Positions 1 through 34,470 of a DNA stretch of 64,000 nucleotides are shown in pieces. Both the position numbers and the translations under genes were made by a program. Source of the stretch: Paramacrobiotus metropolitanus (Eukaryota > Tardigrada > Eutardigrada > Parachela > Macrobiotidae); assembly GCF_019649055.1 (NCBI RefSeq), contig NW_026570316.1:186001-250000 (forward strand). Direction: 5' to 3'. Position 1 is the first letter of the stretch. Each line of letters begins with the position of its first letter. A model generated the notes under the pieces. That model did no database searches. It worked only from the letters and a program-made list of their open reading frames with translations, and was not told the DNA's origin.

Positions 1-3000
1 GATTCGAAAGAAAACGAAAGTGACCTTTCATCAGAAGACGAAGGAGTTGATGAGCGCCCACTTGAAAAAGCTGACAAAGGTCAAGCCACTGCACAGCAGT
101 ACGAGAGCAGTGAATCAGACTCAGAATGGACAAGTTCAAGCGATAATTCAACGACTTCAGAAGATTCGGGTGTAAATGACCTTTCAGAACAAGAAGATTT
201 ACTGGACTTGGATGAAGATGACGAAGTGGACGAAGAAAAAGAAAAAGAGATAAAAGTCAGAAGAGTGAAAATAGAAAAAGCAAGACTTTCGAAAGATGTG
301 ATTAAAGTCTACAGTGACCAACGAATCAAATTGAAACCGTCAATCTGCACACGCGTAAAGGTCAAGATGGGAAAATATGCACCGGCTCAAAACAAGTTGA
401 TGTTCACACCGGTCCCACAAGTTGAAACTGATGTGCAACCGTTGGCAGGAGTGACGGACCACAGAGGAAAATATTTCGAAATCGTCATCGCGAATCATAG
501 TAGTAAATACCAAATCGTGAAGAAAAATCAGCTTCTTGGCTATGTGGAGCCTTACGAACATATGGAGAACGTAAAGGTCAACGCGGGCACAGTAAAGAAT
601 GTACTTGATGACCCAGAGGTGGATGATACGACAAAAGCTGAATTAACAAAGATAATTGGAAACTTGAAATTAGGACCTGACCTCACTGAAGAGCAAAAGA
701 ACGACGTGTATAACGCGTTCTGGGAATTTTGGAAAGTCTTGCCGACATCCAAGAAACCGTACGGAGATGTGAAAGGGGTCACTCACGTAATCGATACGGG
801 AGATGCGAAACCAGTTAAATGTAACCCGGCCAGAACGAGTTGGACAGGCCGTGAGTTCATAACAAAGCACATTGAAGAGATGTTGGCACAAGATGTAATT
901 GAGCCCTCAGACGCCGAATGGAGCTTTCCAGTTGTGCTAGCTGTTAAAAAGAACGGCGATGGGACAATGGGAACAAGATTTTGTGTCAACTACATCATGC
1001 TGAATAAGTTAACGAGAAAGAACAACTACCCGCTACCGAATCCAGATGAGTTGCTTGATGCGTGCGCAGGAAACAAGTACTACGGGAAAATGGACTTGCA
1101 AAGTGGATTCTGGCAGATCCCAATGGATCCAGCGTCAATCAATAAAACGACCTTTGTAACACAAGATGGAATGTACCGATTTAAAAGAATGCCATTCGGA
1201 GTTTGCAACGGACCAGCAACATTCCAATTGTGCATGGACAAAGTACTGTCGAAAGCGAAAAGAAAAGGCTGCGTTTTCGGGTACATTGACGACGTTATCT
1301 TCGCCGGAAAAACATGGGCGGTTTTCATGCAGAATTTGAGAAACGTCTTAATGAGCCTAGTTGAAGCGGGATTCACGATTAAACCGACGAAATGTGAATT
1401 TGGAATGAGACAAATGGGATTTCTGGGTCATATACTCAGTGAAGATGGAATTCGAATGGATCCTGAAAAGGTCACCGCAGTCTCAGAATTTAAACGACCT
1501 CAAACAGAAAGGCAATTAAGGTCATTCCTCGGACTGGCGAATTATTATCGCAAGTTCATAATGGGATATGCACAGAAGACTTGTCATTTGTACGAATTGC
1601 TGAGACAAGATAAGCAAGTGAAAAAAGACTGGACAAAGGTGCACGAAGAGGAATTCAACAGTTTGAAACAACTGTTGTGTGAAGGTCCAGTATTGGCAAA
1701 ATTTGACCCGGCAAAACCGACAGTTATTGAATGCGATGCGAGTAAAGAGGAAATTGGAGCGGTACTGTCACAAGACGGCCACCCGATCGCGTACGCGAGC
1801 CGCGTCTTACACGGAGCCGAAAGAAATTACGGCGTGACGGAATGGGAATGTCTGGCAGTAGTATTCGCTGTCAGAAAGTTTAAGCCATTCATTGACTATG
1901 CGGAATTCACCGTACGAACGGACCACCAGGCGCTGACAAACTTGTTAAGGTCAGAAACAAATAAAGTCGGAATGAACCCGCGCTTGACAAGATGGGCGAT
2001 GGCACTGCAAGGCCACCAGTTTAAAATCGAATATAAACCGGGAAAGTATTGCGACAACGCGGACGCACTATCAAGAGCGCCAATTGAAGGTCCAACATGT
2101 CAAGAAGAAGAATTCGACGAGATTCCGAACTTCGAAGATTATAAGAAGGAATTCGACACCAAAGAACCGGCAAATGAAGTTGGACAATTGTTCCTACAAA
2201 TGGTCGAGCAAAAAGAGAAACGATTAAAGGTCAGCCCAGTTACGGCGAATGAGTCGGCTGAGAATGCGACTAATGTCAACCGGGTAAAAAGTTGGCTGCC
2301 CACCGCTAGTGACTTAAAGGTCACCGGACTTGATGCGGAATTTGAAGTTCAAAATGGAAAGGTCAACGGACTTAACGAAGCAGTAGAGAATCAAGATGAC
2401 CTTTGGGAAACGGACAAAGTTGCACGAGCATTGAATGAGTGTCCGATTAAACTGCTGAAATTCCCAAAACAAGTGAAGAAGAGGTACAAACCATTACCGC
2501 GATGCAAGGTCATAAAAGATTGGAACGAACTGAGTACAGCGACAGTTCGCATCGTTAACCTGCAAGGTGACGAAGAAGAGGAAGACGACTCGAATCTGCA
2601 GTTGAGAAATAAGCAGTTAAAAGACCCCCATCTGGCAATGATAATAGATGAATTGGAACATCTACCAGATGCTGAAACGAGATCGAAATTTGAAGTGCAT
2701 TATCAGCTGTGGAACGGAATACTGTACCGAGTAAAGGATAAAAATGGGAAACTTGAAAGGTCATACGTGGTACCGTTGTCGATGCGAAGGGCGATAATCC
2801 ACGCATTGCACGACGAGAAAGCGGCAGGGCATCTGGGATTTGAAAAGACATTGGCGGCAATTAGACTTCGATACTATTGGGATCGAATGAGCACTGACGT
2901 GAAGAATTACATACTTGCCTGCCAAGGATGTCAATTCCGCAAAACGCCAAGGAAATGCCCACCTGGAAAATTGCAAGAGATAAAAGTTGGACACCCGTTC

Positions 3001-3057
3001 TTCCGAGTTTATGCGGACCTGAAAGGACCGTTATTACCGACGGAGAAACGCGGATAA
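1..3057 (+). CDS. pol: Ty3/gypsy pol (partial): RT, RNase H, integrase N-terminus
   Basis: The frame is open from base 1, so the gene starts upstream. An acidic serine-rich linker (to about base 240) leads to a region ending in YVEPYEH, as found after the protease in Ty3/gypsy polyproteins. Reverse transcriptase follows (about 800-1600), with the catalytic YIDD motif at 1282-1293 and the MDLQSGFWQIP and PFGVCNGPATFQ blocks. RNase H spans about 1700-2090 (ECDASKEEIGAVL, then TDHQAL). A spacer precedes the integrase zinc finger (His-His about 2798-2850, Cys-Cys about 2917-2928). The frame stops at TAA 3055-3057 inside integrase, just after the zinc finger, and the catalytic core continues in the -1 frame. 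RT and RNase H look intact. The encoded enzymes would copy element RNA into DNA. Confidence 0.9.
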   Translation, partial: DSKENESDLSSEDEGVDERPLEKADKGQATAQQYESSESDSEWTSSSDNSTTSEDSGVNDLSEQEDLLDLDEDDEVDEEKEKEIKVRRVKIEKARLSKDVIKVYSDQRIKLKPSICTRVKVKMGKYAPAQNKLMFTPVPQVETDVQPLAGVTDHRGKYFEIVIANHSSKYQIVKKNQLLGYVEPYEHMENVKVNAGTVKNVLDDPEVDDTTKAELTKIIGNLKLGPDLTEEQKNDVYNAFWEFWKVLPTSKKPYGDVKGVTHVIDTGDAKPVKCNPARTSWTGREFITKHIEEMLAQDVIEPSDAEWSFPVVLAVKKNGDGTMGTRFCVNYIMLNKLTRKNNYPLPNPDELLDACAGNKYYGKMDLQSGFWQIPMDPASINKTTFVTQDGMYRFKRMPFGVCNGPATFQLCMDKVLSKAKRKGCVFGYIDDVIFAGKTWAVFMQNLRNVLMSLVEAGFTIKPTKCEFGMRQMGFLGHILSEDGIRMDPEKVTAVSEFKRPQTERQLRSFLGLANYYRKFIMGYAQKTCHLYELLRQDKQVKKDWTKVHEEEFNSLKQLLCEGPVLAKFDPAKPTVIECDASKEEIGAVLSQDGHPIAYASRVLHGAERNYGVTEWECLAVVFAVRKFKPFIDYAEFTVRTDHQALTNLLRSETNKVGMNPRLTRWAMALQGHQFKIEYKPGKYCDNADALSRAPIEGPTCQEEEFDEIPNFEDYKKEFDTKEPANEVGQLFLQMVEQKEKRLKVSPVTANESAENATNVNRVKSWLPTASDLKVTGLDAEFEVQNGKVNGLNEAVENQDDLWETDKVARALNECPIKLLKFPKQVKKRYKPLPRCKVIKDWNELSTATVRIVNLQGDEEEEDDSNLQLRNKQLKDPHLAMIIDELEHLPDAETRSKFEVHYQLWNGILYRVKDKNGKLERSYVVPLSMRRAIIHALHDEKAAGHLGFEKTLAAIRLRYYWDRMSTDVKNYILACQGCQFRKTPRKCPPGKLQEIKVGHPFFRVYADLKGPLLPTEKRG

Positions 3058-4631
3058 AATATATAGCGGTGTTCATCGATCAATTGACGAAATACGTGAT
3101 CGCAGTACCAATGAAGACGGCTACGGCGAAAGAGTTTGCCAAAGTGTTCGTCAAACACGTGATATTGGTGCATGGAGCGCCGCACATCCTACACACGGAT
3201 CGTGGACGGCATTTCACAGCCGAAGTATTGACAAAGGTCACCAACGTGTTTAAGATTAAACACACGTTTGGAACGGCTTATCATCCGGAAGGTCAAGGCC
3301 AAGTCGAAAGACAGATGCAGACGATTGCGGATGGCTTGGCACAATATCTGAAAGCGGGAAACGAAAGAAAATTTAACAAGTACCTTCCATATGTCATTTC
3401 GGCAATGAACAGAGTCGTACACGCCACAACCGGATATTCGGCATATTATATGCTACACGGCAGAGAAATGACCATGCCGGAAGATGTGGTCACAAAAACG
3501 AATATCCCAGATGATTATGGGACTCCCGACGAATGGGTAGAGACCATGAAAAAGAACTTGACCTTTGCAGAAGAAGTGGCGAAATGCAATATTGAAGATG
3601 CATATGAAAAGAACGCGGAAATCTACAATAAGAGGAAATCGGAACCTAACTTTAAAGTGGGTGACCTTGTGTTGATACGACTGCCAAAGGACACGAAACA
3701 GGGGAAGAAAGAAAATCAATCGGACTTTAAATCGAAATATGACAAAGTGTGGAAAATCCTTAGCTTTCCGCGAGCAAACGAAGCGGAGGTCATTGAACAA
3801 AACCCAAAGAAAGAAGCGGACTTGAAAGTGGTTTCGATTGATCGCTTGAAGTTATGGCACCCGCCATTGCCAGAGGAAGGCGCAGAGCGTACTTCTCAAA
3901 AAGAGTCCCTTTTCGAACCACCTCTGCTACCCGAAACGGAAAAAGTAAATGAAAACAAAGCGGAAGAAGCTGAGCAGGATCCGAAAAATGGACCAAGTCA
4001 ATTTTTCGAACCACATATTCTGCTACCCGACCCGATAAGTGGCGACAAACCGAAAAAGAAGAGAGGACGACCAAGGAAAGATGATAAAGATTTCGAAACG
4101 GTAGTTACAAAAAAGTTGAACGCGGAAGCCGGAAACCTGGCAGAAAGGTTACTGGAAAAAGATATCGAAGTAAGCTCCAAAGTAGCAGAGCGTAACGACA
4201 AGGCTCTTTTCGAACCACGCACTGCTACCAAAGACGCGGATGACCTTTTCAAACAGCAGACTGGCGGTGAGATATCAGAGCACGATTCGAATCTTTTCGA
4301 AACACGCACCGCTACTGAGAAAGGGAATCGCCAGAAGGATGATGAATTACCAGAGCGTAATTCTAAAAAGGACTCTCAACAATCCTTTTTCGAACCACGC
4401 ACTGCTACCAAGAATGGGAATGAACCCATAAAAAAGAGAAAAGAGGAAATCGACGCAGTAAAAATAAAAGCCGATCAACTGGGCCGCGATATACAAAAGG
4501 CCATCGCGGAAAGAAAAACCAAAAAGAAGAGGCCAACTCCCACGGAACTTTTAACCCAGAAGGGTGAAATGGAAGATGCAGCCGACAAAGAACTCTTTGA
4601 TCGGATAACTAATGGACGCAAGCACAAATAA
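2928..4631 (+). CDS. pol: Integrase catalytic core and C-terminal tail, -1 frame
   Basis: Integrase homology begins at about 3045, so the upstream ATG at 2928 lies in overlap and is probably not a true start. The DDE core is complete: D in FIDQL (about 3078), D in HTDRG (about 3197) and E in QVERQ (about 3306). The AYHPEGQGQVERQ and INRVVHATTGYSAYYMLHG-type blocks follow the usual order. A C-terminal GPY/F-like module ends near SIDRLKLWHP (about 3835). It is followed by a lysine-rich tail of roughly 230 residues with five degenerate repeats built on FEPRTAT or FEPxxLLP (about 3910, 4003, 4207, 4291, 4388), which is unusual for an integrase. The frame change may be a simple indel or a programmed -1 shift. 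No obvious slippery heptamer stands out. Confidence 0.82.
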   Translation: MSIPQNAKEMPTWKIARDKSWTPVLPSLCGPERTVITDGETRIKYIAVFIDQLTKYVIAVPMKTATAKEFAKVFVKHVILVHGAPHILHTDRGRHFTAEVLTKVTNVFKIKHTFGTAYHPEGQGQVERQMQTIADGLAQYLKAGNERKFNKYLPYVISAMNRVVHATTGYSAYYMLHGREMTMPEDVVTKTNIPDDYGTPDEWVETMKKNLTFAEEVAKCNIEDAYEKNAEIYNKRKSEPNFKVGDLVLIRLPKDTKQGKKENQSDFKSKYDKVWKILSFPRANEAEVIEQNPKKEADLKVVSIDRLKLWHPPLPEEGAERTSQKESLFEPPLLPETEKVNENKAEEAEQDPKNGPSQFFEPHILLPDPISGDKPKKKRGRPRKDDKDFETVVTKKLNAEAGNLAERLLEKDIEVSSKVAERNDKALFEPRTATKDADDLFKQQTGGEISEHDSNLFETRTATEKGNRQKDDELPERNSKKDSQQSFFEPRTATKNGNEPIKKRKEEIDAVKIKADQLGRDIQKAIAERKTKKKRPTPTELLTQKGEMEDAADKELFDRITNGRKHK

Positions 4632-4756
4632 ACCACATAAATATGATTAACGGGGTTTATGATGTAATGATAGGAGTTGGGAAGGCGTAAAAAGGTCATC
4701 ACTGTGAAAAAGGCTAATCAATACTGTTTCATTGTTACAGAAGGTAAGCACAGTTA
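4632..4756 (+). promoter_or_regulatory. Splice-acceptor-like leader before ORF2
   Basis: The short spacer after pol contains a pyrimidine-rich tract ending in CAG at 4738-4740, with a TTCATTGTTACAG consensus. A donor-like AAG/GTAAGC follows at once (4741-4749), then the ORF2 ATG at 4757. The placement suggests that ORF2 is made from a spliced subgenomic mRNA, as env is in retroviruses. The adjacent donor could allow a further splice to the acceptor before ORF3. The matching 5' donor lies outside the window. Confidence 0.45.
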
Positions 4757-6349
4757 ATGGACAGATTGGAACGGCAGAATTCAGATAACTCTGACTCGGA
4801 AAGTATCGGAAACCCGTTAAAGACATCGACCCCAAAAAGAATGGAAGGCGAATACGGATACGACACCTCATACGGTGAAGGGTCGGCGTCGTCGGCGGGA
4901 ACGGCACAGAACGAACCTGAAATAGTCCAAGGAGGGACTTACAGCGGCCCAGGGTATTACGCGTATCATGATCCGGGACAGCCGACGAATTACCAAGATA
5001 CGGTTAATTGGGTGCACCACGGCTCAACTGCCGGAACCCAGTACACAGAACAAACGATGCACAGTGTCCCTTACCAGCCGTACCCAGGAGTATATACCTC
5101 ACCGATGAGACCATCGCAGACAATGATGGGACCGGCCAGAATGTTGATGCCGCCACCACAACAGACCACACCGAGTCGATTTATGGGACACGGAGGATTT
5201 AGCGGAATGATGTTGCCGCCACCGCAACAGACCACACCGAGTCGATTTATGGGACATGGAGGATTTAGCGGGATGATAGCGACCCCAGTACAGTCACAAA
5301 GGTCATCCCCGATATTACCACCCTTTCCAGAAACGGGAGGCTTGTCATTATCGGATATTGGAGCACCTCGTATGAGGACACCGCAACAAATGGGAGCGCA
5401 ACGACCGCATAGGAATTCGCCACAAAAAGGTGGGAGGCGAGGCAGAAATCGTTTTGATTCACCAAGACCGCGAGGTATACTGCCGTCGCTGGGCCCAAAT
5501 TTGGAGCAGGTGGGACCAGATGGATTACGGTTAACACCCCCGGGTGAACCTACCGTGCACGAGTATTCACCAAAACTTCCGTTGGATATGAGAGAGGATG
5601 ATGCTCGGTTGAATATAATTGTGGGAAATAAGGAAAGTTTGACGGAAACCGATACAGAGGCCATCCAGGATTTTAATCGGATGTGTCGTGACCTATACAG
5701 AATCCATATGCGGGTCGAGGATGAACACGCATTTTATGGAAGGTTAATCAGTTTGGATGCGGTTATTAAACCGGTTCATATCGCACTGAAGGATAAGACT
5801 AAAGTCATCGAGGTTAAGCGGAAAGAGTTGGCGATCAAAATTGCCTCGATGAAGCAGTACCACCCGGCATTAGTCGAGAGGAAATGGCCGTGGATGATCG
5901 AACAGATCCAAAGGTTCCTTAAGACGTTCCCCCAAGAGAAGCGGACTCCTACAGGCAGCGTAGCGGGGCCGTCACGGGCGCTAGTCGAAGCCCCAGTAGA
6001 TGAGATGTCAGACAATGACCTCCTGGAAACAAAGAGAAAGATAGAAGCGGAACTAACCGAAAGGTCACGGGCCAGTTCAACCACAGGCTCAGCACGCGGA
6101 CGGACAAGCTCAGTTGCAGATTCGTCTCGCGGAAGCATAAAGAGCGGAAAACGAACAAGGTCACCGACGACAAGCCCAAAAGAAGGTGATAAAAAGGGGC
6201 AACCGACCAAAAAGGTCACGGCGAGTATAAAGCACCGCCGGCTAAGCCACAAGCACCGATACCGGTTGGTAGAAAAAGTGCACCGCCCACACCGACAAAT
6301 CCGGAGATCACGCAATTGCGTCTTCCGAAATGTAGGACTTATACGGTGA
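4757..6349 (+). CDS. Retroelement ORF2, segment a (Pro/Gly/Gln-rich)
   Basis: ATG at 4757 is the only proper start among the ORF2 segments. The N-terminal half is low complexity, rich in Pro, Gly, Gln, Met and Tyr. It contains a 66-bp (22-residue) tandem duplication at about 5149-5280 with core PPPQQTTPSRFMGHGGFSG. Residues about 275-400 are more globular and helical (LTETDTEAIQDFNRMCRDLY onward). A basic serine-rich stretch follows. The last 40 residues in this frame look like out-of-frame translation. The proline-rich continuation is in the next frame from about 6229, so an indel lies near 6200-6230. Function is unknown. It could be a displaced gag-like structural protein, but no zinc knuckle is visible. 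Confidence 0.6.
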   Translation: MDRLERQNSDNSDSESIGNPLKTSTPKRMEGEYGYDTSYGEGSASSAGTAQNEPEIVQGGTYSGPGYYAYHDPGQPTNYQDTVNWVHHGSTAGTQYTEQTMHSVPYQPYPGVYTSPMRPSQTMMGPARMLMPPPQQTTPSRFMGHGGFSGMMLPPPQQTTPSRFMGHGGFSGMIATPVQSQRSSPILPPFPETGGLSLSDIGAPRMRTPQQMGAQRPHRNSPQKGGRRGRNRFDSPRPRGILPSLGPNLEQVGPDGLRLTPPGEPTVHEYSPKLPLDMREDDARLNIIVGNKESLTETDTEAIQDFNRMCRDLYRIHMRVEDEHAFYGRLISLDAVIKPVHIALKDKTKVIEVKRKELAIKIASMKQYHPALVERKWPWMIEQIQRFLKTFPQEKRTPTGSVAGPSRALVEAPVDEMSDNDLLETKRKIEAELTERSRASSTTGSARGRTSSVADSSRGSIKSGKRTRSPTTSPKEGDKKGQPTKKVTASIKHRRLSHKHRYRLVEKVHRPHRQIRRSRNCVFRNVGLIR

Positions 6350-7467
6350 AATACACTGGGACGGACCATAACGAACGAAAGGTCACGGCTAGGATAGTCG
6401 ACAAAGGAACGAATAAAGAGATCGACTCGTGCAATCCCCTAGCAGATAAGTCAGTCAAAAACGAGATCGGGGAAAGGTCAAAGACAGAAGTCAATGAGGC
6501 GTTACAGTTCATTCCTCCGGAGGAGCGTCACAACCCACGAGTCCTCATTCAGATGATGAAACACGTTGTGTCTAAAGTAGCGATCGAAGAAGATGCATGG
6601 ATCCGAATTAAAGTGGGCACGAACGAAGACCACTTGGCGTATACATATACAACGGATGGAAGGCTGTTGACAAAAGAAAGAATTCGACCAAAACCAACAG
6701 CAGACCCAGACCCGGCTAAACGAAAATTAGACGATTACGAGTCGACCCTGAAATATACTGACGGAACATGTAGGAAGGTGACGTTGAAACTCCATTTTGA
6801 GGATAACACGACGGACAGCCTAACCGCAGTAATCATTGACCCGGTAACGGGAGACCCGATCCCATACGCCCCATGGGACATATCAGAAGAAAGCGCTGAA
6901 CAGGCCAATAAGACAGCCCTCGATCAGCTGTGGCACCTGATACCAGAAAGCGATCGTCAAGACCCGGCAGTCCAAGCAAACACACTGATCAGCATGATGC
7001 GGTATCGAGCGGAAAAAGACGAAGCCCATTTCCGACTCACAAGAAGAATGGAAAACGGAGCGTATAAAACGGTGTTCTATGACGCCATGAAGAACCCTTT
7101 GTGGGAAATCACAACACAGGGACAGGACGCGACGACACCTCACTTGGAAATTCTGGGCCAACAGCCAGCACAAAAAGATGGAGCTGGAGAAATGGAAGAA
7201 GCCCCAGTAGCCGAAATAGAAGAAACTGGAGGAGCCAGACGATCATTGCAACGTGTATTAGAGATCGTCCAAGGGGATGAAGAACATCCTCCATGTGGGG
7301 ACATTAATTGTGAACGATGTAACGTAACCGATGAATCAGAAACAAAATCGGCAGGAGACGACACAGGCGAAGAAGAAGAAGCGGATGAAGGAACTGAGGA
7401 AATTCCTCCCATCCCTCAAAAGTGGTTATTAAATCAAAGAAAGCGGCTAAACTGGAAGAAGCTATGA
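6316..7467 (+). CDS. Retroelement ORF2, segment b with a duplicated domain
   Basis: The frame is open from about 6229. Its first codon at 6316 is TTG, not ATG, which argues for continuation of segment a rather than an independent gene. It contains two copies of one domain of about 110 residues. Copy 1 runs from TYTVKY to TTDGRLL and copy 2 from STLKYTDG to KNPLWEI. Both have a short beta-like start, then a block such as NEALQFIPPEERHNP or DQLWHLIPESDRQDP, then a Met-rich helix and a final strand. The end is acidic with a CxDxxCERC-like patch (about 7292-7318). Near 7410-7420 the frame shifts again into segment c. I do not recognise the fold. Confidence 0.6.
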   Translation: MRLPKCRTYTVKYTGTDHNERKVTARIVDKGTNKEIDSCNPLADKSVKNEIGERSKTEVNEALQFIPPEERHNPRVLIQMMKHVVSKVAIEEDAWIRIKVGTNEDHLAYTYTTDGRLLTKERIRPKPTADPDPAKRKLDDYESTLKYTDGTCRKVTLKLHFEDNTTDSLTAVIIDPVTGDPIPYAPWDISEESAEQANKTALDQLWHLIPESDRQDPAVQANTLISMMRYRAEKDEAHFRLTRRMENGAYKTVFYDAMKNPLWEITTQGQDATTPHLEILGQQPAQKDGAGEMEEAPVAEIEETGGARRSLQRVLEIVQGDEEHPPCGDINCERCNVTDESETKSAGDDTGEEEEADEGTEEIPPIPQKWLLNQRKRLNWKKL

Positions 7468-9761
7468 ACCGGAAAAAGGGGAAGAAAGCCGATAAGAAGG
7501 TGGAAGAAAAGAAGAAGGATGACAAAAAGGATGACGAGAAAAAGAAGAAAGGTCACGGAAAGCAGAAAAGTAAACCCGCGACTCCGGACGTTGAAATTTT
7601 CGACGAGACTGAAAGGTCGTCATCACCGGCGCCTCCGAAAAAGTTCATCATTGAATCGGCGACTTCTAAAACAAAGAGCGATGAACCGACGACATCGAAA
7701 GCAAAGACTATTGCGGTCAAACAAGTCGTCCCTGTCGTTATATCAGCAGCCACCCCGAAAGAACGCAAAGAAAAGGAGAAGCGCGAGAAAGCAAAGCGAG
7801 AAATATCTCGTGAATCGTCAGCATCCGAAACGAGCTTACCAAGCACTTCGACGGTCAGTTCAAGATCACACGTGGACCCGAAAACGGTCAGATCAAGAAC
7901 CACAGAACCGGGGAGCCTAGCAGAGGCTCTGGAAAAAGGAAAAAAAGCAAAGAGCGAACCAGTTAAGTCGAAGGCGAAAGGCAAAACGACCATGAAAATT
8001 GACGCATTGGCGATGGCCACCTATACCCAACCAGACGGGGATAGTGAACTTGATTATTCAGGAGACGAACTGGAATTCGACGATCCTGATGATGATAATA
8101 TGACCACGATCGACGAAATTGTTGAGGCATTCGATGGAGCAGAGAAAAACTTCACACGAATAAGGACGGCATCAGTGACAGCGAAATTCCGAACTGGTTT
8201 GAAAAGATATTTGAAAGAGAAACGCCGTAGCTTCACCAAACAAAAGTTCGACGTCATATTGGAGTATGCTCGTAACGCAGGAAAACTTATCCAGAAACAT
8301 CCTAACTTCGCGTATAAGGCCAAGTTATTCAGACCAGCGAGTTCGGACAAGGCGTTGACAAGTCCAAACGAAGACAGTTCAATGCGGGTAGAAAGGGCAA
8401 TCGCAGGAATGACAAGCCCGTTGGGATCAACGAGTCACCGGATCAGTCAATATATCAACGCCGTTTGGCATGATGGAAGAGGGATGATAAAGGAAATCGA
8501 TACGGCCACCGAACGTGCATTGCCGAGGATGATTAAACAGAACATCCTATCAACAACAAACGCACACAAAGGACTGCCGATTAGATATACGAGAGTGGGA
8601 CTTATACCTCCGGAAAAACAAGGTCACTGTCATATGTCTGACAGTCAAGACATGGAAAAAGTTAAAGTGCCAATACAGGGAGATCCAGCGACTCCCATAC
8701 TGAACCAGATTGCACAACGGATAGCAGAAGATGAGGCCGCGCGGGTGAAGTCACAAGCCCCTAAAGTGCTTAAACAAAAAGGACCAATGGATTCGGAATC
8801 GGAAGACAGTGATGATAATACCACCAAAGAAACGCCTCTTGAACCAGCGAAAGAAAAAGATGAACAGTCAAAAGGTCAAGAGACAATTGGAACGGTGGCA
8901 GAAGTTCAAATGAAAGGTCACGAGACTCCGGAAACAGGGGAGAAAGAAAAGGTTATGCTCCCTGGCGAGAAAGTAGAGGCGGAGAAAGAAGCTGATTCTG
9001 CGCGACAAGTGTTTCAAAAATCTTTGCTCGCACCATCGGAGGAGGCGGATAAACCGAAAGGTCATGAGATTTTGCCACAAGAAGAGAAGACCGCCGAACC
9101 GAAATCGACTCAGTCATCATCGGGGTCTTTGGGAAAACTGACGATTGTTGAAACAGACCCAACGGACTCAACGGGCTCGGCATTATCCCCCCAGAAATTG
9201 AAAAGCGATGATACACAGACAAAAGAGGAACCGAATTATATGTTAGGAGCACCGTTAGATGTGAACAACCGAACATGGAACGAAGTTCAAACGGCGCTTC
9301 AAGGGGAAAGAGAAGGCGAAATGCTCGGCGCGCAGCTGAAAGAACAGGTTGTCGCGAGCTCAAGAGGAAGATCATCATTCAACATGACGGAACGAGTCCT
9401 GAAGCGAGCGTATAAGGAAGGAAAGCTGGGATGTAAATACAATAAAGACAACAAGATTATTTACTACCTTCCGAAGTCTATACGCACACCCAGACTTAAA
9501 ATGGAATTGGAGATATGGAAAATAGCCATCACAGATGTGGCTTTAGACGCTATTGGCGGTACAAAAGGAGCGTCGTGGAGTGACCTTTCCAATTTCATGG
9601 CTGTCCATTATGAACTGGGAGAATTGAATATTGAAAAGGACAAAGAGTGGATTAAGAATGCCGTAGAAGCCCTGATCAAAGACGATGACGTGCTTATGAT
9701 CAACGAAGACGGCCGAGTTGACTTTAAGCCGTATAATCCACCGGCAAAGGCAGCGGAGTGA
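7422..9761 (+). CDS. Retroelement ORF2, segment c; linker-histone-like C-terminus
   Basis: The annotated first codon is GTG, and the first ATG is at 7464 inside the overlap, so this is probably a continuation of ORF2. It starts with a very lysine-rich stretch (KKGKKADKKVEEKKKDDKK) and low-complexity Ser/Glu. A globular segment lies at about 8100-8620 (IDEIVEAFDGAEKNF through RYTRVGLIPPEK), followed by a long charged linker with repeated KGHE motifs. The last 90 or so residues (about 9490-9745) look like a winged helix: KIAITDVALDAIGG, GASWSDLSNFMAVHYELG, EWIKNAVEALIKDDDVLMIN, then DGRVDFKP. The order and spacing match the globular domain of histones H1/H5 (helix, Ser-rich turn, helix, recognition helix, beta wing ending FKL). 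DNA or chromatin binding is inference. Confidence 0.62.
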   Translation: MVIKSKKAAKLEEAMNRKKGKKADKKVEEKKKDDKKDDEKKKKGHGKQKSKPATPDVEIFDETERSSSPAPPKKFIIESATSKTKSDEPTTSKAKTIAVKQVVPVVISAATPKERKEKEKREKAKREISRESSASETSLPSTSTVSSRSHVDPKTVRSRTTEPGSLAEALEKGKKAKSEPVKSKAKGKTTMKIDALAMATYTQPDGDSELDYSGDELEFDDPDDDNMTTIDEIVEAFDGAEKNFTRIRTASVTAKFRTGLKRYLKEKRRSFTKQKFDVILEYARNAGKLIQKHPNFAYKAKLFRPASSDKALTSPNEDSSMRVERAIAGMTSPLGSTSHRISQYINAVWHDGRGMIKEIDTATERALPRMIKQNILSTTNAHKGLPIRYTRVGLIPPEKQGHCHMSDSQDMEKVKVPIQGDPATPILNQIAQRIAEDEAARVKSQAPKVLKQKGPMDSESEDSDDNTTKETPLEPAKEKDEQSKGQETIGTVAEVQMKGHETPETGEKEKVMLPGEKVEAEKEADSARQVFQKSLLAPSEEADKPKGHEILPQEEKTAEPKSTQSSSGSLGKLTIVETDPTDSTGSALSPQKLKSDDTQTKEEPNYMLGAPLDVNNRTWNEVQTALQGEREGEMLGAQLKEQVVASSRGRSSFNMTERVLKRAYKEGKLGCKYNKDNKIIYYLPKSIRTPRLKMELEIWKIAITDVALDAIGGTKGASWSDLSNFMAVHYELGELNIEKDKEWIKNAVEALIKDDDVLMINEDGRVDFKPYNPPAKAAE

Positions 9762-10121
9762 ACGGGATGAGCGTAATATGCAGCGAGTAATGGACCCTGC
9801 ATATTACAGAAAACAAAAAGCATAAAAAGGTTAAAACGAATGAGAAACAGTCGTATGGAAAAGCGAAAGTGAAAAGGTCAACTCGAGGGAAGCGTTAAGA
9901 CTAATAGAAAAGGTCACAGTAGTCAGAAAAAACGCTGATAACGTGAGAAAGGTCACCACGTTATAGCGATAGAAAGGAATTCAGGAGCTAGGAAAGTCTC
10001 GGCTCAGTAACGGAATAGGCGTAAAAACGATAAAAAGCCTGATAATGGATAGGAATGGAAAAGATTTACGGGGAACAGTTACTATGACGGATTGTTTTTA
10101 ATTTCAGATTTAAAGCGGAAA
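9762..10121 (+). promoter_or_regulatory. ORF2-ORF3 spacer with splice acceptor
   Basis: This 360-bp non-coding spacer carries three AAAGGTCA octamers within about 80 bp (near 9873, 9912 and 9947). It ends in a strong acceptor, TTGTTTTTAATTTCAG, with AG at 10106-10107, 15 bases before the ORF3 ATG at 10122. A subgenomic spliced message for ORF3 is the simplest reading. Confidence 0.5.
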
Positions 10122-11591
10122 ATGGCACAAAAAGGTCAAGCCACTCCTAAAGCCTCGGGAACGACATCGGAAATAGACAGATCTACGGGCTATAACCCAA
10201 AGTGTCCGGACTGTCTACGGAACAACAGAAAGGTCGATAAGAAGTTCCCGTGCTATACATGTGTTCACAAGTTGGGGGACCCACACATCGTTTCACTCGT
10301 TGGACTTATGGAAGTCAAACGGGGGAACATGGATGTTTTTCGGAACCTCATTAGCGCGAGGAATTATGGCAGCATCCCGGTAGAGGAGCGAATGTTACTT
10401 GAGGATCGTTACCGAGAAGCGATCCGGAATAACGAAAGTGGATGGGATGAAACCTTAGAACCATTGAAATGTCTACAAACAGACGCGTACCGTAAGAAGT
10501 TTGAAGAGGAACAAGAGAAGATGCACCGGCAACAGTTGGAAGACGAACTCCGCGCAAAAATTGAAGCGAACAATAGACGGGCTAGCGAACAGGCAGCTCG
10601 AGAGGCGATGCCCAGCTCATCAAACTCAGCCGTACCTACAGCGAGTCTCAACGAAGATGAAGCCCGGTTGATACGTCAGTCTCTCATTATTCAAACTGAT
10701 ACGCTGATAAACGATCCGGCCGCCATGCAAAAGGAATTATTCGACGCATTGTTGCGGGAAAAGCAGAGATTGCAGAAGGGGTTTGCTCCAGCACCATACA
10801 TAAAGAAGGAAATCGAAACACGTATGGAGGAGCTACGAAAAGCCCGTCAGAACGAGAGTAATGTCCTGCAAGCACTCAGAGGATTTAAACGGGACGAGGG
10901 TTTTATACGACCTCGATCACCTCCGCAAAGAGAAAGGTCACGCGGACATTCACGTGAACGGGAACGGACTTATGACCGCCAAAGTGAAAGACCACGCGAA
11001 CACTCTCGTGAAAGGACACGAGATTACCGCAGCGAAAGGTCACGCGAACGTTCTCGCGACCGAGATTATCGTGGCGGAAGAGGATGGGTACGCCATGGAA
11101 ATGAGATAACAGAAACGAGTATTCAGCGGAAAATCGACACGGCAAAGATTTTGGCCGCGACAAGAGGACGCGAAGAACAACGGCGTGCGGAGGCATTCCG
11201 CACAGAGCCTGAAAAGAAAGGTCATCAGGTGCCGTTGGGAGTTGCGTTCTGTAACCGTAATGTCAGAATGTCAACGCCTGAAAGGTCATGGGACAAAAGA
11301 CGTGAGCGCACACGGAATCGAACGCCAGACCCACAGGACAAGCGATGGCAAGAGAGAGCCAAGTACTATGCGGGTTTTGAATCTGGCGCAAGCAAAAGGT
11401 CATCGAGTGCGGAACGGGAAGACTCACCCCCGAAGCATCAGAGAATGGAATCGACAGTCCATGTCGTGGATCCCATCGTGAGTGCTGAGGATGACACGAT
11501 GGAGGGGGCTAGCCCAGTCGCAGCCTCAGTGTCCCAAGAGAACGTAATTCACCGAAGAAACGTGGTCCTCGACAGTGACCCTCGACAGTGA
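10122..11591 (+). CDS. Retroelement ORF3, segment a: zinc ribbon and RS/RE-rich protein
   Basis: I place the start at ATG 10122, just after the acceptor; the longer frame begins at a TTG. A CxxC-x12-CxxC cluster (residues 28, 31, 44, 47: CPDC and CYTC) suggests a zinc ribbon. A coiled-coil-prone helix follows at about residues 120-170 (FEEEQEKMHRQQLEDELRAK). Residues about 265-320 are an Arg-Ser/Arg-Glu tract (SRERERTYDRQSERPREHSR) like the RS domains of splicing factors. The frame ends at TGA 11589-11591 because of a 13-bp tandem duplication, and the protein continues in segment b. It may be an RNA-binding gag-like or splicing-related accessory protein. No family is recognised. Confidence 0.6.
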   Translation: MAQKGQATPKASGTTSEIDRSTGYNPKCPDCLRNNRKVDKKFPCYTCVHKLGDPHIVSLVGLMEVKRGNMDVFRNLISARNYGSIPVEERMLLEDRYREAIRNNESGWDETLEPLKCLQTDAYRKKFEEEQEKMHRQQLEDELRAKIEANNRRASEQAAREAMPSSSNSAVPTASLNEDEARLIRQSLIIQTDTLINDPAAMQKELFDALLREKQRLQKGFAPAPYIKKEIETRMEELRKARQNESNVLQALRGFKRDEGFIRPRSPPQRERSRGHSRERERTYDRQSERPREHSRERTRDYRSERSRERSRDRDYRGGRGWVRHGNEITETSIQRKIDTAKILAATRGREEQRRAEAFRTEPEKKGHQVPLGVAFCNRNVRMSTPERSWDKRRERTRNRTPDPQDKRWQERAKYYAGFESGASKRSSSAEREDSPPKHQRMESTVHVVDPIVSAEDDTMEGASPVAASVSQENVIHRRNVVLDSDPRQ

Positions 11592-11593
11592 CC
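11568..11593 (+). repeat. 13-bp tandem duplication that breaks ORF3
   Basis: CTCGACAGTGACC occurs at 11568-11580 and again at 11581-11593. The second copy shifts the frame by +1 and creates the ORF3a stop. Around it the amino acids LDSDP are read in both frames, so the original frame is easily inferred. It is a recent replication-slippage lesion in this copy. Confidence 0.85.
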
Positions 11594-12867
11594 CTCAACC
11601 GTCCACATCGGCGAGTAATGAACCGCTACAACGTGAACCAGAAGGACGACGCGAGCAAGCAGTTCAACGCGAACCGGACAATCGTCGCGAAGACGACCGA
11701 AGAACGACTTCCAGATTTAATAACCGACACCCTGATCTTATCGACATGGAATATGACATGAGTGATACTCATGAGCAAACGTTGGAAATTTGTCGATATT
11801 TCGGGATCGAACCTGATTCGGTTGAAGCTAACAAGATCGGCACCATAATGCGCCAGCTACGCCAATTCTTATTAGACTCTGGCTACGCTCAAGAAATTAG
11901 ACAAGGATTGGAAGAAGGAAACTTCCATCGACTACACATTCCCCGCGATTCGGCGAGAGATTGTTATCTCCCGATCCGACAGAATGGGCTGCATAGTCTA
12001 TTGGACTTGAATTTACTAGATGTGCCACTGGACACGACTGACCCAGTGGGGATGACCCAATTTTATTATACCGATTACCCTGAACGACAGGAATATGTGG
12101 CTCAATTCGTTCTACGCCATGTGAATCCAGCTTTTAAATTGCTTGCAGCGAGAGCATCAATAGGATTACAAGTCGATCCTACGGACCATGCCGCAAAAAG
12201 GATGGGGCAAAAGGTCTTTGCTGCACGACTCGCACATTATAAGACACAAAATCAGTTGGTGTCTAATACCATGAAGGACGATATCCCACCGTTGTTCCGA
12301 CCTCATGTGGCGAAATTGGGCGAACCCATGGAACACGTCGGAATAGCCCATACGGCCAGAAAGGCGTTGAAAAAGTGTAAGACACGAAGGGAAAAGGGCA
12401 ATCTCACACAGCGACACGCCTCCCAAGTTGAAGAGCGGATTAACCGGATTAAAGATACCATGGGAAGCGACTACGTTGAACCAGTGGACGGAGTCGAAAC
12501 GTACATAAACGAATTCCTTGTGAATAAAGGTGATCGACGTCCGGAACGCGCTCCTAACCAGATAGGAAGACGTGGTTTGCGAAACCAGCAGCTACGAGAT
12601 AATCTAGCTGATGTGCAACGTCGACTGGCGGACGATCCTAATAACCGAAGACTGCGGTTAGAGGAAAATGACGCACGCCACCAAGTCGAGGCGATTAAGC
12701 GTAGCCGCCAAGGGAAAGGTCGTGGTCAGCGAGCAGTTGACCCGGAAAAGGTCATGGAAGTTGACTTGACGGAACCAGTCGACCGAACTTCTGACCGAAA
12801 TCAACCGGAAAGTGCTAAGAAGCGCCCGCCAAGAGATGGCGAGGGCGATTCAAGTGAAATGGAATAG
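11575..12867 (+). CDS. Retroelement ORF3, segment b
   Basis: The first codon is GTG inside the 13-bp duplication, so this is the downstream part of ORF3 and not a separate gene; with segment a the intact ORF would be about 920 codons. After a charged linker there is a globular, mostly helical region at residues about 60-260 (EQTLEICRYFGIEPDSVEAN, then NGLHSLLDLNLLDVPLDTTD, then RQEYVAQFVLRHVNPAFKLL). A basic helical segment follows (RKALKKCKTRREKGN), then an Arg-rich coiled coil and a Lys/Arg-rich tail. There is no signal peptide, membrane segment or zinc knuckle. The size, helical core and basic tail would suit a capsid or nucleocapsid protein, but I cannot assign a family. Confidence 0.58.
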   Translation: MTLDSDPQPSTSASNEPLQREPEGRREQAVQREPDNRREDDRRTTSRFNNRHPDLIDMEYDMSDTHEQTLEICRYFGIEPDSVEANKIGTIMRQLRQFLLDSGYAQEIRQGLEEGNFHRLHIPRDSARDCYLPIRQNGLHSLLDLNLLDVPLDTTDPVGMTQFYYTDYPERQEYVAQFVLRHVNPAFKLLAARASIGLQVDPTDHAAKRMGQKVFAARLAHYKTQNQLVSNTMKDDIPPLFRPHVAKLGEPMEHVGIAHTARKALKKCKTRREKGNLTQRHASQVEERINRIKDTMGSDYVEPVDGVETYINEFLVNKGDRRPERAPNQIGRRGLRNQQLRDNLADVQRRLADDPNNRRLRLEENDARHQVEAIKRSRQGKGRGQRAVDPEKVMEVDLTEPVDRTSDRNQPESAKKRPPRDGEGDSSEME

Positions 12868-13047
12868 TGATGATCGTTAGGATCACACTATTGAAAAGGC
12901 GTCTACGGCATTTGTCGGCACGTCACAAAAATGGTGTTGTATAAGGGCGACGTGACATATTTACTTAAAACTGTATTTGTGTATTTGTTGTTTGCAGCGT
13001 TTATAGCACAGAAACCGAAAGGATAAAGAAATCATGTGGAGCATCGA
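12868..13047 (+). other. Non-coding spacer after ORF3 with acceptor-like site
   Basis: No coding potential is seen. TTTGTTGTTTGCAG (AG at 12996-12997) resembles a further splice acceptor just upstream of the tandem array. Confidence 0.4.
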
Positions 13048-13510
13048 ATGGGGTTTAAATTGATTCGGTCTATAAAGCCGGCCCCAAGGGAGTAGTTGCG
13101 GCAGTCAGCCGGCTCTCCTCCTTAAGCGACTCAGTGTTATAAATTGGCGAGAGAAACTACGGTAATCAAGCCGGATCTCTTGAATACGGAAGTGGGCCAC
13201 AAGCGGCGAAAAAGAGAAAGACAACAGGTGGAAATATTAATGGGGTAAACTTGATGCGGCAGTCAGCCGGCCTCATTAGGGTTGCTACGGTAAACTATGC
13301 CGGCAATCTCTCCAAGCGACTCAGTGTTATAAATCAACGAGAGAAATAGCGGTAACCAAGCCGGATCTCTCGTACCGAAGTTGGGCCACAAGCGGCGAAC
13401 AAGAGTAAAAGATTGAATGTGGAAACGCCATGGGGTAAATTTAATGCGGTAAACAGCCGGCCCCATCGGAGATGTTACGGTAAACTCTGCCGGCACTCTG
13501 GCCGCTCGAG
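13048..13510 (+). repeat. Tandem array of about 190-bp units in the element 3' UTR
   Basis: Units start at 13048, 13240 and 13430 (ATGGGGT...), with periods of 192 and 190 bp. The third is truncated near 13510. Shared landmarks are AGCGACTCAGTGTTATAAAT, AAGCCGGATCTCT and GGGCCACAAGCGGCGAA, plus several short CGGTAAAC/GCCGGC-type inverted pairs. Its position between the last ORF and the LTR resembles regulatory or insulator arrays of other gypsy elements. Confidence 0.8.
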
Positions 13511-14045
13511 GCATATTGAAGTTGGATGTGCGACGGAAAGGTCAAATTGAAAGTCTTACCAGGGAGGCAAGCGAAGAAGTGCTTGAAAGTCGTTAAAAAT
13601 CGGCTAAGTTCCTCCATGACCTATGACGGAAGTTTGAAAAGAAGTCGGATGACCTTTGGGATCATCATTGCCCAACAGAGTCACCGTATCAGGACTTAAA
13701 GTCGCATGACCTTTTGGGACCATTAGCCCAAGTGAGTCGCACATCCCGGATCATCTCAACAAAGGATGACCTTTACCAGGGAGGAAGCGAACTACGCTTG
13801 TCTACATGACGTCCCTCCATGACCTTTATTGAATCTCATTGTAAAGACGTACAATTGATACGCACGTTATCCCAAAGATGAAGCAGTATTCCTAAGTCGT
13901 ACTTGATACGCACCTGATTCTCAAGCGGATTGTGATGAAAAGTCGCATTACGGATGCGCGGACTTGCTCAACAGAGCGAAATGGGCCAAAGAGTGCGGAA
14001 AACGGTGGACAGGACCTGTGACCTATACGAGTCAGAAATGGAGGA
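13511..14045 (+). promoter_or_regulatory. TGACCTTT-rich 3' untranslated region
   Basis: One AAAGGTCA (13537) and four TGACCTTT (near 13647, 13707, 13766, 13818) occur within 300 bp, with two more TGACCTAT variants. Two diverged copies of an ACCAGGGAGG...CCTCCATGACCT block lie near 13558-13620 and 13776-13830. The stretch ends with a purine-rich run AGAAATGGAGGA (14034-14045) that could be the polypurine tract. Confidence 0.55.
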
Positions 14046-14651
14046 TCCTAGTCTACTTTTGATTAATACTTTTGTTGATCTTTTAACTGTTGATCTGTTT
14101 TGTATTAGAATTGATATGGAATAGTATTTTGGTACAGATCTCTTTATTCACATTGTGCATTTGGAATTGTGTGATAAACGGAATAAGAGAATTTGATGTT
14201 TTTGAGCACGCACAGACACCGGCGACCGTCTTTTCGTGGATTCCGGAGTGTGCTGAGCCTCAACGGAGCTCGGCATCCCCCCAGAGGCATGTGAGACGAG
14301 GGCTCACTAGCGTTCACGCCTGTGGCGCTAGGCGCTACGCCGATGGATTACGGTCTGTGTTGTGTCTCGCTTCTGATTGGCTCGCGCTTTATTAGTGGGC
14401 GCGGTATAGCACGTGCTGCACACTGTTGCACAGTGTGGAATTGGCTCTACGATTTGCGATCGAGCTGTGCCGATGAGGATGTTGATTTCTGTTGTGCAGA
14501 CTTTCAATATATTAAAAGTCAGCAATTAGCGGTGCGACGTCTAGTGTTTTCGCTTAGTTCGCAATCCAGATCGCATTGCTCACTCCACAGGATCTATCCC
14601 GTTTAGGTCTCTGTCCCTGGATCACAGTTGGATCTAGCATTAGAGTATGTT
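14046..14651 (+). repeat. Candidate 3' LTR
   Basis: The block follows a polypurine-like run, changes base composition abruptly and contains no AAAGGTCA. It could start at a TGTTGATC (about 14083 or 14090) and end ...TATGTTACA at about 14651. An inverted CCAAT (GATTGG, about 14376) lies inside. The upstream LTR is outside the window, so the repeat itself cannot be verified. Confidence 0.4.
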
Positions 14652-19324: not shown

Positions 19325-19480
19325 TTGGACCCCGTGAATAATACTGTAATACCGTATGATTGGTTGGACCCCGTGAATAATACTGTAATACCGTATGATT
19401 GGTTGGACCCCGTGAATAATACTGTAATACCGTATGATTCGTTGGACCCCGTGAATAATACTGTAATACCGTATGATTCG
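19325..19480 (+). repeat. 39-bp minisatellite, four copies
   Basis: Exactly four units at 19325, 19364, 19403 and 19442 (TTGGACCCCGTGAATAATAC...). The last two differ at the 3' end (GATTCG instead of GATTGG). The period is divisible by three and so gives a repeated pseudo-peptide, but no gene context supports translation. Confidence 0.9.
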
Positions 19481-19509
19481 TTGTCAGCTCCTACCGAAGT
19501 ACGTACCTG

Positions 19510-34231: not shown

Positions 34232-34470
34232 GTATCGCCTATGTATGGTGAAAAACAATACAGCTCGTATTATTTATGCACCACACCAGTCACGCAGTAA
34301 TCAAATAATTAAAAGTATCGTCTATGGTGAAAACAATACATTTCGTATTATTTATGCACCACACCAGTCACGCAGTAATCAAATAATTAAAAGTATCGTC
34401 TATGGTGAAAACAATACATTTCGTATTATTTATGCACCACACCAGTCCCGCAATAATTAAATAATTTAAG
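34232..34470 (+). repeat. 78-bp tandem repeat, three copies
   Basis: Units begin GTATCGYCTATG at 34232 (83 bp), 34315 (78 bp) and 34393 (decaying). Each contains TTATTTATGCACCACAC and CACGCAGTAATCAAA. A single copy exists at the equivalent place in unit A (about 28540), so expansion followed duplication. Confidence 0.85.

What the first reader, a model, noticed from the sequence alone, without database searches (positions are those of the whole stretch)
21..14025. A retroelement saturated with AAAGGTCA nuclear-receptor half-sites
About 40 AAAGGTCA/TGACCTTT octamers (about 30 forward, 10 reverse) and about 13 more AGGTCA hexamers lie in 14 kb, against roughly 0.4 octamers expected. They occur in three codon phases (giving ERS, KGH/KGQ and KV), in different ORFs and in non-coding spacers. 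The constraint therefore acts on the nucleic acid and not on a peptide repeat. AAAGGTCA is the NBRE of NR4A receptors and fits ERR/FTZ-F1-like half-sites. The element may be wired to hormone or stress signalling, or the octamer may be an RNA packaging or tethering motif. Host DNA elsewhere in the window has only about seven in 43 kb.
Basis: partly seen in the sequence, partly recalled or inferred. Interest (0 to 1): 0.88.

Follow-up and report, generated by a model that had tools for sequence, protein, structure and literature searches.

The report
Giant retrotransposon with a conserved octamer
A 24-kb jumping element in a tardigrade genome carries the same 8-letter DNA word 84 times, in genes and spacers and on both strands, and related copies have mostly kept the word while the sequence around it drifted, so the word itself seems to do a job.

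Summary
The window holds the 3' 14.6 kb of a complete 24,462-bp Ty3/Gypsy element (identical 355-bp LTRs, GTAT target duplication) in the tardigrade Paramacrobiotus metropolitanus. AAAGGTCA/TGACCTTT occurs 84 times (58+26) in its 23.75-kb interior, never in the LTRs. Codon-preserving shuffles give 4.4+0.4 in the ORFs against 53+13 observed, in every phase open to them. Across 20 related copies octamers are exact in 369 of 437 comparisons (other 8-mers 26%); synonymous sites inside octamers changed in 21 of 1,018 cases, against 32% elsewhere. A cousin lineage has 1 and 7 octamers per 8 kb, those alignable lying at the same places; four loci of two more distant families have none. So selection acts on the nucleic-acid word, and its mass expansion is lineage-specific. 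Enrichment on both strands in ORFs favours double-stranded DNA over RNA, though untranslated regions are one-sided. The word equals the NR4A response element and the genome holds an NR4A-like gene, but binding is untested. Best reading: a dispersed platform for a sequence-specific DNA-binding protein, most likely an NR4A-type receptor; RNA-level and element-encoded alternatives stay open. Five literature searches aimed at it found no such retroelement.

The parts
1..3057 (+). pol part of the element in this copy: RT about 946-1437, RNase H about 1630-2010, integrase zinc-binding domain about 2770-2946; continues upstream of the window
   Evidence: Pfam RVT_1, RT_RNaseH, RT_RNaseH_2, Integrase_H2C2; ORF. 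8 F + 3 R octamers in 1-2897
2898..4631 (+). integrase core and C-terminal extension (weak AT-hook); in another frame in this copy, while copy L026 has one ORF of 1501 aa through this point
   Evidence: Pfam rve; AT_hook below its cut-off; L026
4748..6349 (+). ORF5, no Pfam domain
6193..7467 (+). ORF6, no Pfam domain
7398..9761 (+). ORF7, no Pfam domain; structure models of two pieces uninformative
10053..11591 (+). ORF8, no Pfam domain
11548..12867 (+). ORF9, no Pfam domain
12868..14289 (+). 3' non-coding region with one AAAGGTCA (13537), four TGACCTTT (13650, 13707, 13767, 13820) and a 190-bp tandem repeat (13124-13499)
14290..14644 (+). 3' LTR, 355 bp, identical to the 5' LTR at L011:183-537; no octamer; followed by the GTAT target duplication
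21..28 (-). octamer shared with the cousin lineage (L040 and L041 both carry TGACCTTT here)
76..83 (+). octamer, exact in 19 of 19 copies
1467..1474 (+). octamer, exact in 20 of 20 copies
2316..2404 (+). octamers at 2316 (+), 2358 (+), 2397 (-): exact in 20/20, 20/20 and 15/20 copies
3233..3240 (+). octamer, exact in 20 of 20 copies
9873..9955 (+). octamer triplet in the spacer between ORF7 and ORF8 (9873, 9909, 9948): exact in 4/10, 10/10, 10/10 copies
13650..13827 (-). four TGACCTTT in the 3' non-coding region

Best explanation
A complete, recently inserted, multicopy giant Ty3/Gypsy retrotransposon is studded with 84 copies of one exact 8-bp site. SHOWN: the site is over-represented at the nucleotide level, in every possible reading phase, in non-coding parts and in both orientations, and most of its occurrences are held by strong purifying selection centred on the 8 bp. 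INFERRED: the site is read as double-stranded DNA by a sequence-specific protein that binds a single asymmetric half-site. The most likely reader is a host nuclear receptor of the NR4A (NGFI-B/HR38) type, whose monomer site is exactly AAAGGTCA. The many sites together recruit it along the whole integrated copy, keeping the element transcribed or unsilenced where that receptor is present.
For: 53 F + 13 R in 20,338 coding bases against 4.44 (max 12) and 0.41 (max 4) in 2,000 codon-preserving shuffles. Octamers exact in 369/437 site-by-copy comparisons against 26% for other 8-mers; none of 20,000 random sets of 26 8-mers exceeded 0.484 against 0.849 observed for the 26 sites covered in at least 10 copies. 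Synonymous changes inside octamers 13/558 (2-fold) and 8/460 (4-fold) against 5300/18084 and 5257/14666 far away. Substitution 0.9-5.5% at the eight positions against 17% background and 8.7% and 24.3% at the two adjoining bases. One-mismatch versions are not comparably enriched, so recognition is sharp. Both orientations are conserved: F 280/336, R 89/101. Six shortened copies have 19-25 forward octamers in about 1.45 kb with at least 16 stops in every frame. NBRE = AAAGGTCA, bound by NR4A monomers (PMC4777543, passages; PMC12539977, passages). The host has three adjacent exons 83/76/67% identical to the NR4A1 DNA-binding domain; the other 34 matches are 33-62%. A host signal-peptide-like gene (by eye) has three TGACCTTTATA just upstream of its ATG (L037).
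Against: No binding or expression data exist. The LTRs, where promoters of LTR elements lie, have no octamer (at the interior density about 1.3 per LTR would be expected, so this is weak). Untranslated regions are orientation-biased: 9 of 9 in the leader are TGACCTTT although base composition predicts 86% AAAGGTCA. A DNA site needs no such bias; partial local duplication may explain it (leader flank identity 0.334 against 0.270 random, 9 of 2,000 random sets as high). A base four positions before the octamer is also unusually conserved (11 changes of 431, 0.134 expected from codon position), though it has no preferred letter; an NBRE does not predict this. The cousin lineage in the same host has only 1 and 7 octamers in 8 kb, and four loci of more distant families none, so the presumed host factor is not needed by related elements. 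Any protein with this 8-bp site would fit as well as NR4A.
Confidence: 0.4

Rival explanations
1. The octamer is a family-specific tag read by a protein that is not NR4A: an element-encoded product (Gag zinc knuckle, integrase extension, one of ORF5-9) or another host DNA-binding protein. Related families would then drift to different tags.
For: Cousins in the same genome differ. Family C has no octamer but an excess of CCGACCT on the sense strand, 8/5/8 against 0.9/1.0/0.6 in codon shuffles. The cousin lineage A-prime shows excess GAGATC/GAGATG words. The recognition is sharp at all eight positions.
Against: Six of seven shortened copies, which align to only 4.4-5.0 kb of window 1-10000 and so lack most of ORF5-9, keep 39-47 octamers, although they could be helped in trans. 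The C and A-prime words are weaker and only marginal for conservation. Structure models of two ORF7 pieces are uninformative (pLDDT 42 and 40).
Confidence: 0.25
2. The octamer works in RNA: dispersed packaging or assembly signals on the genomic RNA, or base pairing of UGACCUUU in the leader and 3' region with AAAGGUCA in the body, compacting a 24-kb RNA.
For: Untranslated regions are mostly TGACCTTT (non-coding total 13 R, 5 F) while ORFs and the array are mostly AAAGGTCA. Genome-wide, close same-orientation pairs (2,545) far exceed close opposite pairs (62 and 201). Family C's word is sense-strand only. Dispersed packaging signals are described for RNA viruses (PMC6281560, abstract in a search listing).
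Against: A single-stranded RNA motif should be enriched in one orientation, but in ORFs both are, the reverse one even more relative to its null (32-fold against 12-fold), and both are about equally conserved. Forward dominance in the array follows from its A-rich composition (expected share 0.88-0.91). Close pairs lie partly in clusters that may have grown by duplication.
Confidence: 0.2
3. The octamers are a by-product: peptide repeats, tandem duplication, or shared ancestry of young copies.
For: Some local duplication exists. Flanks resemble each other more than random in the leader (0.334 against 0.270), at forward ORF sites (0.295 against 0.265, above all 200 random sets) and in the arrays (0.311-0.337 against 0.271-0.278, above all 500 random sets in each of six copies). 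KGH/KGQ and ERS peptides recur.
Against: Three phases, both strands, non-coding arrays, and synonymous change about 16-fold lower inside octamers than elsewhere in the same copies. Flank resemblance is slight, so duplication alone cannot keep only the 8 bp intact.
Confidence: 0.03
4. The word drives recombination or gene conversion among copies, or is spread by biased repair, without a benefit for the element's expression.
For: Dispersed, orientation-free, exact words of this kind are known in bacteria (Chi, DNA-uptake words; recalled). Thirteen positions carry the octamer in some copies but not in the window copy; at 7673 and 7703 the window copy differs at three of eight bases.
Against: No tract-like conservation is seen around sites: most flanking bases diverge near the background rate, the main exception being one base four positions upstream. 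No such mechanism is known to me in animals.
Confidence: 0.07

Closest known systems
[quoted passage not shown]
   Same: A Ty3/Gypsy element with a tight cluster of one protein-binding word in its leader; here nine TGACCTTT in about 400 bp (L011 1457-1856). Twelve sites in 340 bp in gypsy: passages of PMC2374998.
   Different: Here 66 of 84 sites lie in ORFs across 24 kb. The word is a nuclear-receptor-type half-site, not the Su(Hw) site, and insulator activity is untested.
NR4A response element NBRE (AAAGGTCA)
   Same: Identical 8 bp; all eight positions fixed; monomeric asymmetric site (PMC4777543, passages).
   Different: Dozens of sites inside a mobile element; no binding shown.
Giant Ty3/Gypsy elements Burro (planarians) and Ogre (plants)
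   Same: Interior of 23.75 kb, close to Burro's up to 25 kb; extra ORFs around pol (PMC6431247, passages).
   Different: None of the Burro domains (BIR, ankyrin, BCL2, MATH) was found in seven window ORFs with Pfam. No dispersed word was mentioned for Burro in the passages seen.
Dispersed packaging signals of RNA viruses
   Same: A short word repeated through the genome and kept by selection (PMC6281560, abstract only).
   Different: Here both strands are enriched in ORFs, and close inverted pairs that would form stem-loops are rare.
Bacterial dispersed words (Chi, DNA-uptake sequences, KOPS; recalled)
   Same: Exact short word, in coding and non-coding DNA, in both orientations.
   Different: Found in a eukaryotic retroelement, expanded in one lineage.

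Membership tests
Ty3/Gypsy LTR retrotransposon | Paired LTRs, target-site duplication, primer-binding site next to the 5' LTR | tested here: met
   355-bp identical LTRs; GTAT on both sides; TGGTAGCAGAGC directly after the 5' LTR (primer-site role by analogy)
Ty3/Gypsy LTR retrotransposon | pol order RT - RNase H - integrase | tested here: met
   Pfam order in window 946-3287
Ty3/Gypsy LTR retrotransposon | gag with CCHC zinc knuckle before pol | tested here: inconclusive
   L011 ORF 1905-5711 carries a CX2CX4HX4C stretch, read by eye; no profile search of that ORF was run
Burro-type giant gypsy | Interior over 20 kb | tested here: met
   23,752 bp
Burro-type giant gypsy | BIR, ankyrin, BCL2-like, MATH domains | tested here: not met
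   No such Pfam family in seven window ORFs at E<=0.5; the upstream ORFs of L011 were not scanned
gypsy-type insulator | Cluster of one protein's sites in the leader | tested here: inconclusive
   Nine TGACCTTT, L011 1457-1856; the binding protein is unknown
gypsy-type insulator | Enhancer-blocking activity | not testable with these tools
   Needs a reporter assay
NR4A-regulated element | Exact NBRE octamer, sharp at all eight positions | tested here: met
   NBRE definition PMC4777543
NR4A-regulated element | NR4A gene in the host | tested here: inconclusive
   C45:296815-298439, three exons 83/76/67% identical to the NR4A1 DBD, clearly the best by identity; orthology not proven by a tree, and the longest single match (C22) is 53%
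NR4A-regulated element | Receptor binds the sites in vivo or in vitro | not testable with these tools
   Needs ChIP or EMSA
Dispersed RNA packaging signals | Word enriched on the sense strand only | tested here: not met
   ORFs: F 53 against 4.44 and R 13 against 0.41; but untranslated regions are one-sided

The most novel reading that the evidence does not exclude
A mobile element whose whole 24-kb genome, protein-coding sequence included, is written over with one exact protein-recognition word, most copies of it separately under strong selection. This would be a genome-wide address label or chromatin platform (anti-silencing or distributed enhancer) that expanded within one retroelement lineage, with related families possibly carrying other labels. 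No retroelement known to me does this.
Probability: 0.45. Interest if true: 0.92.

Novelty: new variant of a known kind. Interest (0 to 1): 0.8.

Why it matters
Retroelements are expected to keep their cis signals mainly in LTRs and leaders. Here 84 sites persist at the nucleotide level, 66 of them in ORFs at a cost to codon choice, so most of them must matter to the element. The word is exact, equals a known receptor site and is expanded in one lineage. That makes direct tests possible of whether a host transcription factor, or an element-encoded protein, reads a mobile element along its whole length, for example to resist silencing. It also warns that apparent peptide repeats (KGH, ERS) can be shadows of DNA words.

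Tried and rejected
Peptide-repeat origin: rejected by phases, strands and synonymous conservation. Simple composition: rejected. Local hairpins formed by the two orientations: close inverted pairs are rare, 62 and 201 loci against 2,545 same-way pairs genome-wide. Regular spacing: not found (CV 1.08 against 0.98 random). A DNA-binding domain in ORF7: PDB sequence search gave only weak hits (E>=0.31), and two single-sequence models had pLDDT 42 and 40. Selection on total number per element: suggestive only. Six of seven shortened copies have 39-47 octamers to the 3' LTR in 7.3-8.6 kb against 40 in 14.3 kb of the window copy, but the seventh (L025) has 17. Dispersed words in sister families: family C CCGACCT and lineage A-prime GAGATC/GAGATG are enriched, but their conservation is marginal after counting the words tested; kept as leads. 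Family B (one locus, L032) shows no comparable word. A pair count of family C's word in the whole genome did not complete.

Limits. The copies compared are the 20 best-ranked of the 39 other RT matches listed (40 scored of 429 first-look candidates). They are related, so per-comparison counts are not independent; the control 8-mers come from the same copies. Leaders and 3' ends of other full-length copies were not obtained. Group names A, A-prime, B, C are mine. The A-prime comparison rests on two bodies and one leader.
Full report
What is there. The window is G000:C96:186001-250000 of a 169.8-Mb genome in 533 contigs. The closest named protein to its RT region is from the tardigrade Paramacrobiotus metropolitanus, 96% identical (P0001). 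Contig C1 of G000 is 4,484,719 bases, the same length as the contig listed for the P. metropolitanus proteins P0002 and P0003, and the reported genome is 170 Mbp (PMC11191345, passages), so this is that species. The finding's 14 kb is the 3' part of a larger element: 355-bp identical LTRs lie at L011:183-537 and window 14290-14644, with GTAT on both outer sides and TGGTAGCAGAGC next to the 5' LTR. Element length is 24,462 bp, interior 23,752 bp. Identical LTRs mean a recent insertion. Pol shows RT, RNase H and integrase in Ty3/Gypsy order. A gag-like ORF of 1,268 aa and two further long ORFs lie upstream, and five ORFs without a Pfam domain lie downstream of integrase.

Counts. The interior holds 58 AAAGGTCA and 26 TGACCTTT, the LTRs none; 66 of the 84 lie in ORFs. 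In the window part, 30 + 10 against 0.71 + 0.14 from a second-order Markov model; it ranks first among 8-mers. Shuffling synonymous codons within each of 10 ORF pieces (20,338 bases, 2,000 shuffles) gives 4.44 F (max 12) and 0.41 R (max 4) against 53 and 13; F phases are 16/18/19, R phases 0/4/9 (phase 0 would be a stop). One-mismatch versions are far less enriched: the largest forward counts are 5 for AAAAGTCA (1.88 expected) and 5 for AAAGGTTA (0.52 expected); many of the latter face an exact octamer in the copies (35 of 48 comparisons).

Conservation. Twenty family copies (10 kb each, 80.6-86.5% identical where aligned) were compared with window 1-10000. The 28 octamers there are exact in 369 of 437 comparisons, other 8-mers in 26%. 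Of 20,000 random sets of 26 8-mers none exceeded 0.484 against 0.849. Not all sites are kept: 7548 is exact in 0 of 7, 9057 in 6 of 18, 5298 in 5 of 13, 9873 in 4 of 10. With the encoded peptide held identical, octamers are kept 67/67, 58/60 and 129/136 by phase against 46%, 34% and 34%. Synonymous changes inside octamers are 13/558 and 8/460 (2- and 4-fold sites) against 5300/18084 and 5257/14666 far away, and 219/954 and 262/811 within 9 bp. Oriented over sites, substitution is 0.009-0.055 at the eight positions, 0.087 just before, 0.243 just after, background 0.174. One flanking exception is unexplained: the base four positions before the octamer changed in 11 of 431 comparisons, against 0.134 expected from its codon positions, though it has no preferred letter. 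The base after the octamer is rarely G (2 of 84) and the next rarely A (4 of 84), so the preference may extend slightly. Thirteen positions carry the octamer in some copies but not in the window copy.

Shortened copies. Seven of the 20 copies reach the 3' LTR within 10 kb. Six of them keep 39-47 octamers from the homologue of window 1 to the LTR, the window copy 40 over 14.3 kb; L025 has 17. In these six the downstream array (19-25 AAAGGTCA and 0-1 TGACCTTT in about 1.45 kb) has 16-28 stops in every frame, so it is non-coding. Among these copies octamers of L017 4601-7300 are exact in 117 of 162 comparisons against 51% of other 8-mers, weaker than in the pol region. Array flanks are slightly alike (0.311-0.337 against 0.271-0.278 random), so some duplication took part.

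Orientation. In ORFs both orientations exceed their nulls. Non-coding sites are mostly TGACCTTT (13 R, 5 F); the leader is 9 of 9 R although composition predicts 86% F. Leader flanks are somewhat alike (0.334 against 0.270 random, 9 of 2,000 random sets as high), 3' flanks are not (0.264 against 0.254), forward ORF flanks slightly (0.295 against 0.265, above all 200 random sets). Close same-way pairs number 2,545 genome-wide (reversed-pattern control 51), R..F pairs 62 loci (control 21), F..R 201 (control 20). This one-sidedness is the best argument for an RNA role; local duplication is my alternative for the leader.

Where the word came from. AAAGGTCA occurs 42,562 times in the genome against 15,522 for the reversed word. 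Family B (P0002, 59% identical to the window RT region in protein; locus L032) and family C (70-71% identical to P0002; loci L033-L035) have none in 4.6-5.4 kb each. A closer cousin (L040 and L041 bodies, 72-73% identical where aligned to L011; L038 leader, 77%) has 1 and 7 octamers in 8 kb of body. All six alignable octamers of L041 sit on family-A octamers, and the one in L040 matches window 21. Of family-A octamers covered, L041 has 6 of 20 exact and 6 with one mismatch, L040 1 of 21 exact and 11 with one mismatch. So part of the site set is old and the mass expansion is specific to this family. Clusters also occur elsewhere: an inverted-repeat element with two octamers in each terminus (L036), a signal-peptide-like gene with three TGACCTTTATA before its ATG (L037), and an intron-like array in a DNA-polymerase-like gene (L039) (readings by eye).

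Reader of the word. AAAGGTCA is the monomeric NR4A site (PMC4777543, passages). The genome has 63 zf-C4 matches. A paper on C4-type zinc-finger proteins in tardigrades exists, but the terms NR4A and HR38 do not occur in its main text (PMC12941274, term search and passages). These facts make NR4A possible, not proven.

Literature. Searches for AAAGGTCA + retrotransposon (2 papers), tardigrade + LTR retrotransposon + gypsy (8), giant + LTR retrotransposon + Burro + planarian (3), NBRE + NR4A + transposable element + binding sites (2) and Paramacrobiotus + retrotransposon (0) listed no title or abstract start that reports this element or a retroelement with such a dispersed word. Of those papers I opened passages of PMC6431247 and PMC12539977; the latter, in the passages shown, mentions the NBRE only as a receptor site. 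Searches gave background. Only open-licence PMC papers are searched.

Verdict. The word is real, nucleotide-level, strongly selected and expanded in one lineage. DNA reading by an NR4A-type receptor is my leading mechanism at 0.4; an element-specific tag (0.25) and an RNA function (0.2) remain.

Noticed in passing
L037 (G000:C1:276900-278100), 501-666: A gene with a signal-peptide-like start has three TGACCTTTATA within about 120 bp upstream of its ATG and a fourth TGACCTTT in the signal peptide; C1:331928-332080 has a similar cluster of four octamers.
   Followed up: partly
L039 (G000:C1:2923500-2924500), 311-490: DNA-polymerase-B-like coding sequence (by eye) interrupted by an intron-like stretch made of degenerate GGTGACCTTT repeats.
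   Followed up: no
L036 (G000:C1:1543300-1548200): Element with about 518-bp inverted termini, 91.5% identical, each with a pair of octamers.
   Followed up: no
L033-L035 (family C): Sister Gypsy family without the octamer has a sense-strand excess of CCGACCT (8, 5, 8 against 0.9, 1.0, 0.6 in shuffles).
   Followed up: partly
L038, L040, L041 (lineage A-prime): Cousin lineage shows excess GAGATC/GAGATG/AGATGA words in ORFs and GAGATC/AGATCA in its leader, with low synonymous change at AGATG (5 of 77 against 22%).
   Followed up: partly
28 octamers of window 1-10000, fourth base before the octamer: Conserved (11 changes of 431 comparisons, 0.134 expected) without a preferred letter; unexplained.
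   Followed up: partly
window 57518-59428: Four octamers in and before a gag-like ORF (58826-59428, by eye) of another retroelement.
   Followed up: no
window 23472-24628, 38433-39675, 44576-45642: Three paralogous genes that look like intradiol ring-cleavage dioxygenases (by eye), and two paralogous receptor-like ORFs at 31284 and 36925.
   Followed up: no
window 13124-13499, 19325-19483, 34244-34466: Tandem repeats of 190 bp (2 copies, in the element's 3' region), 39 bp (4.1 copies) and 78 bp (2.8 copies).
   Followed up: no
window 2898-3057: Pol of this copy changes frame here, whereas copy L026 has one ORF through it; the window copy may be non-functional despite identical LTRs.
   Followed up: partly
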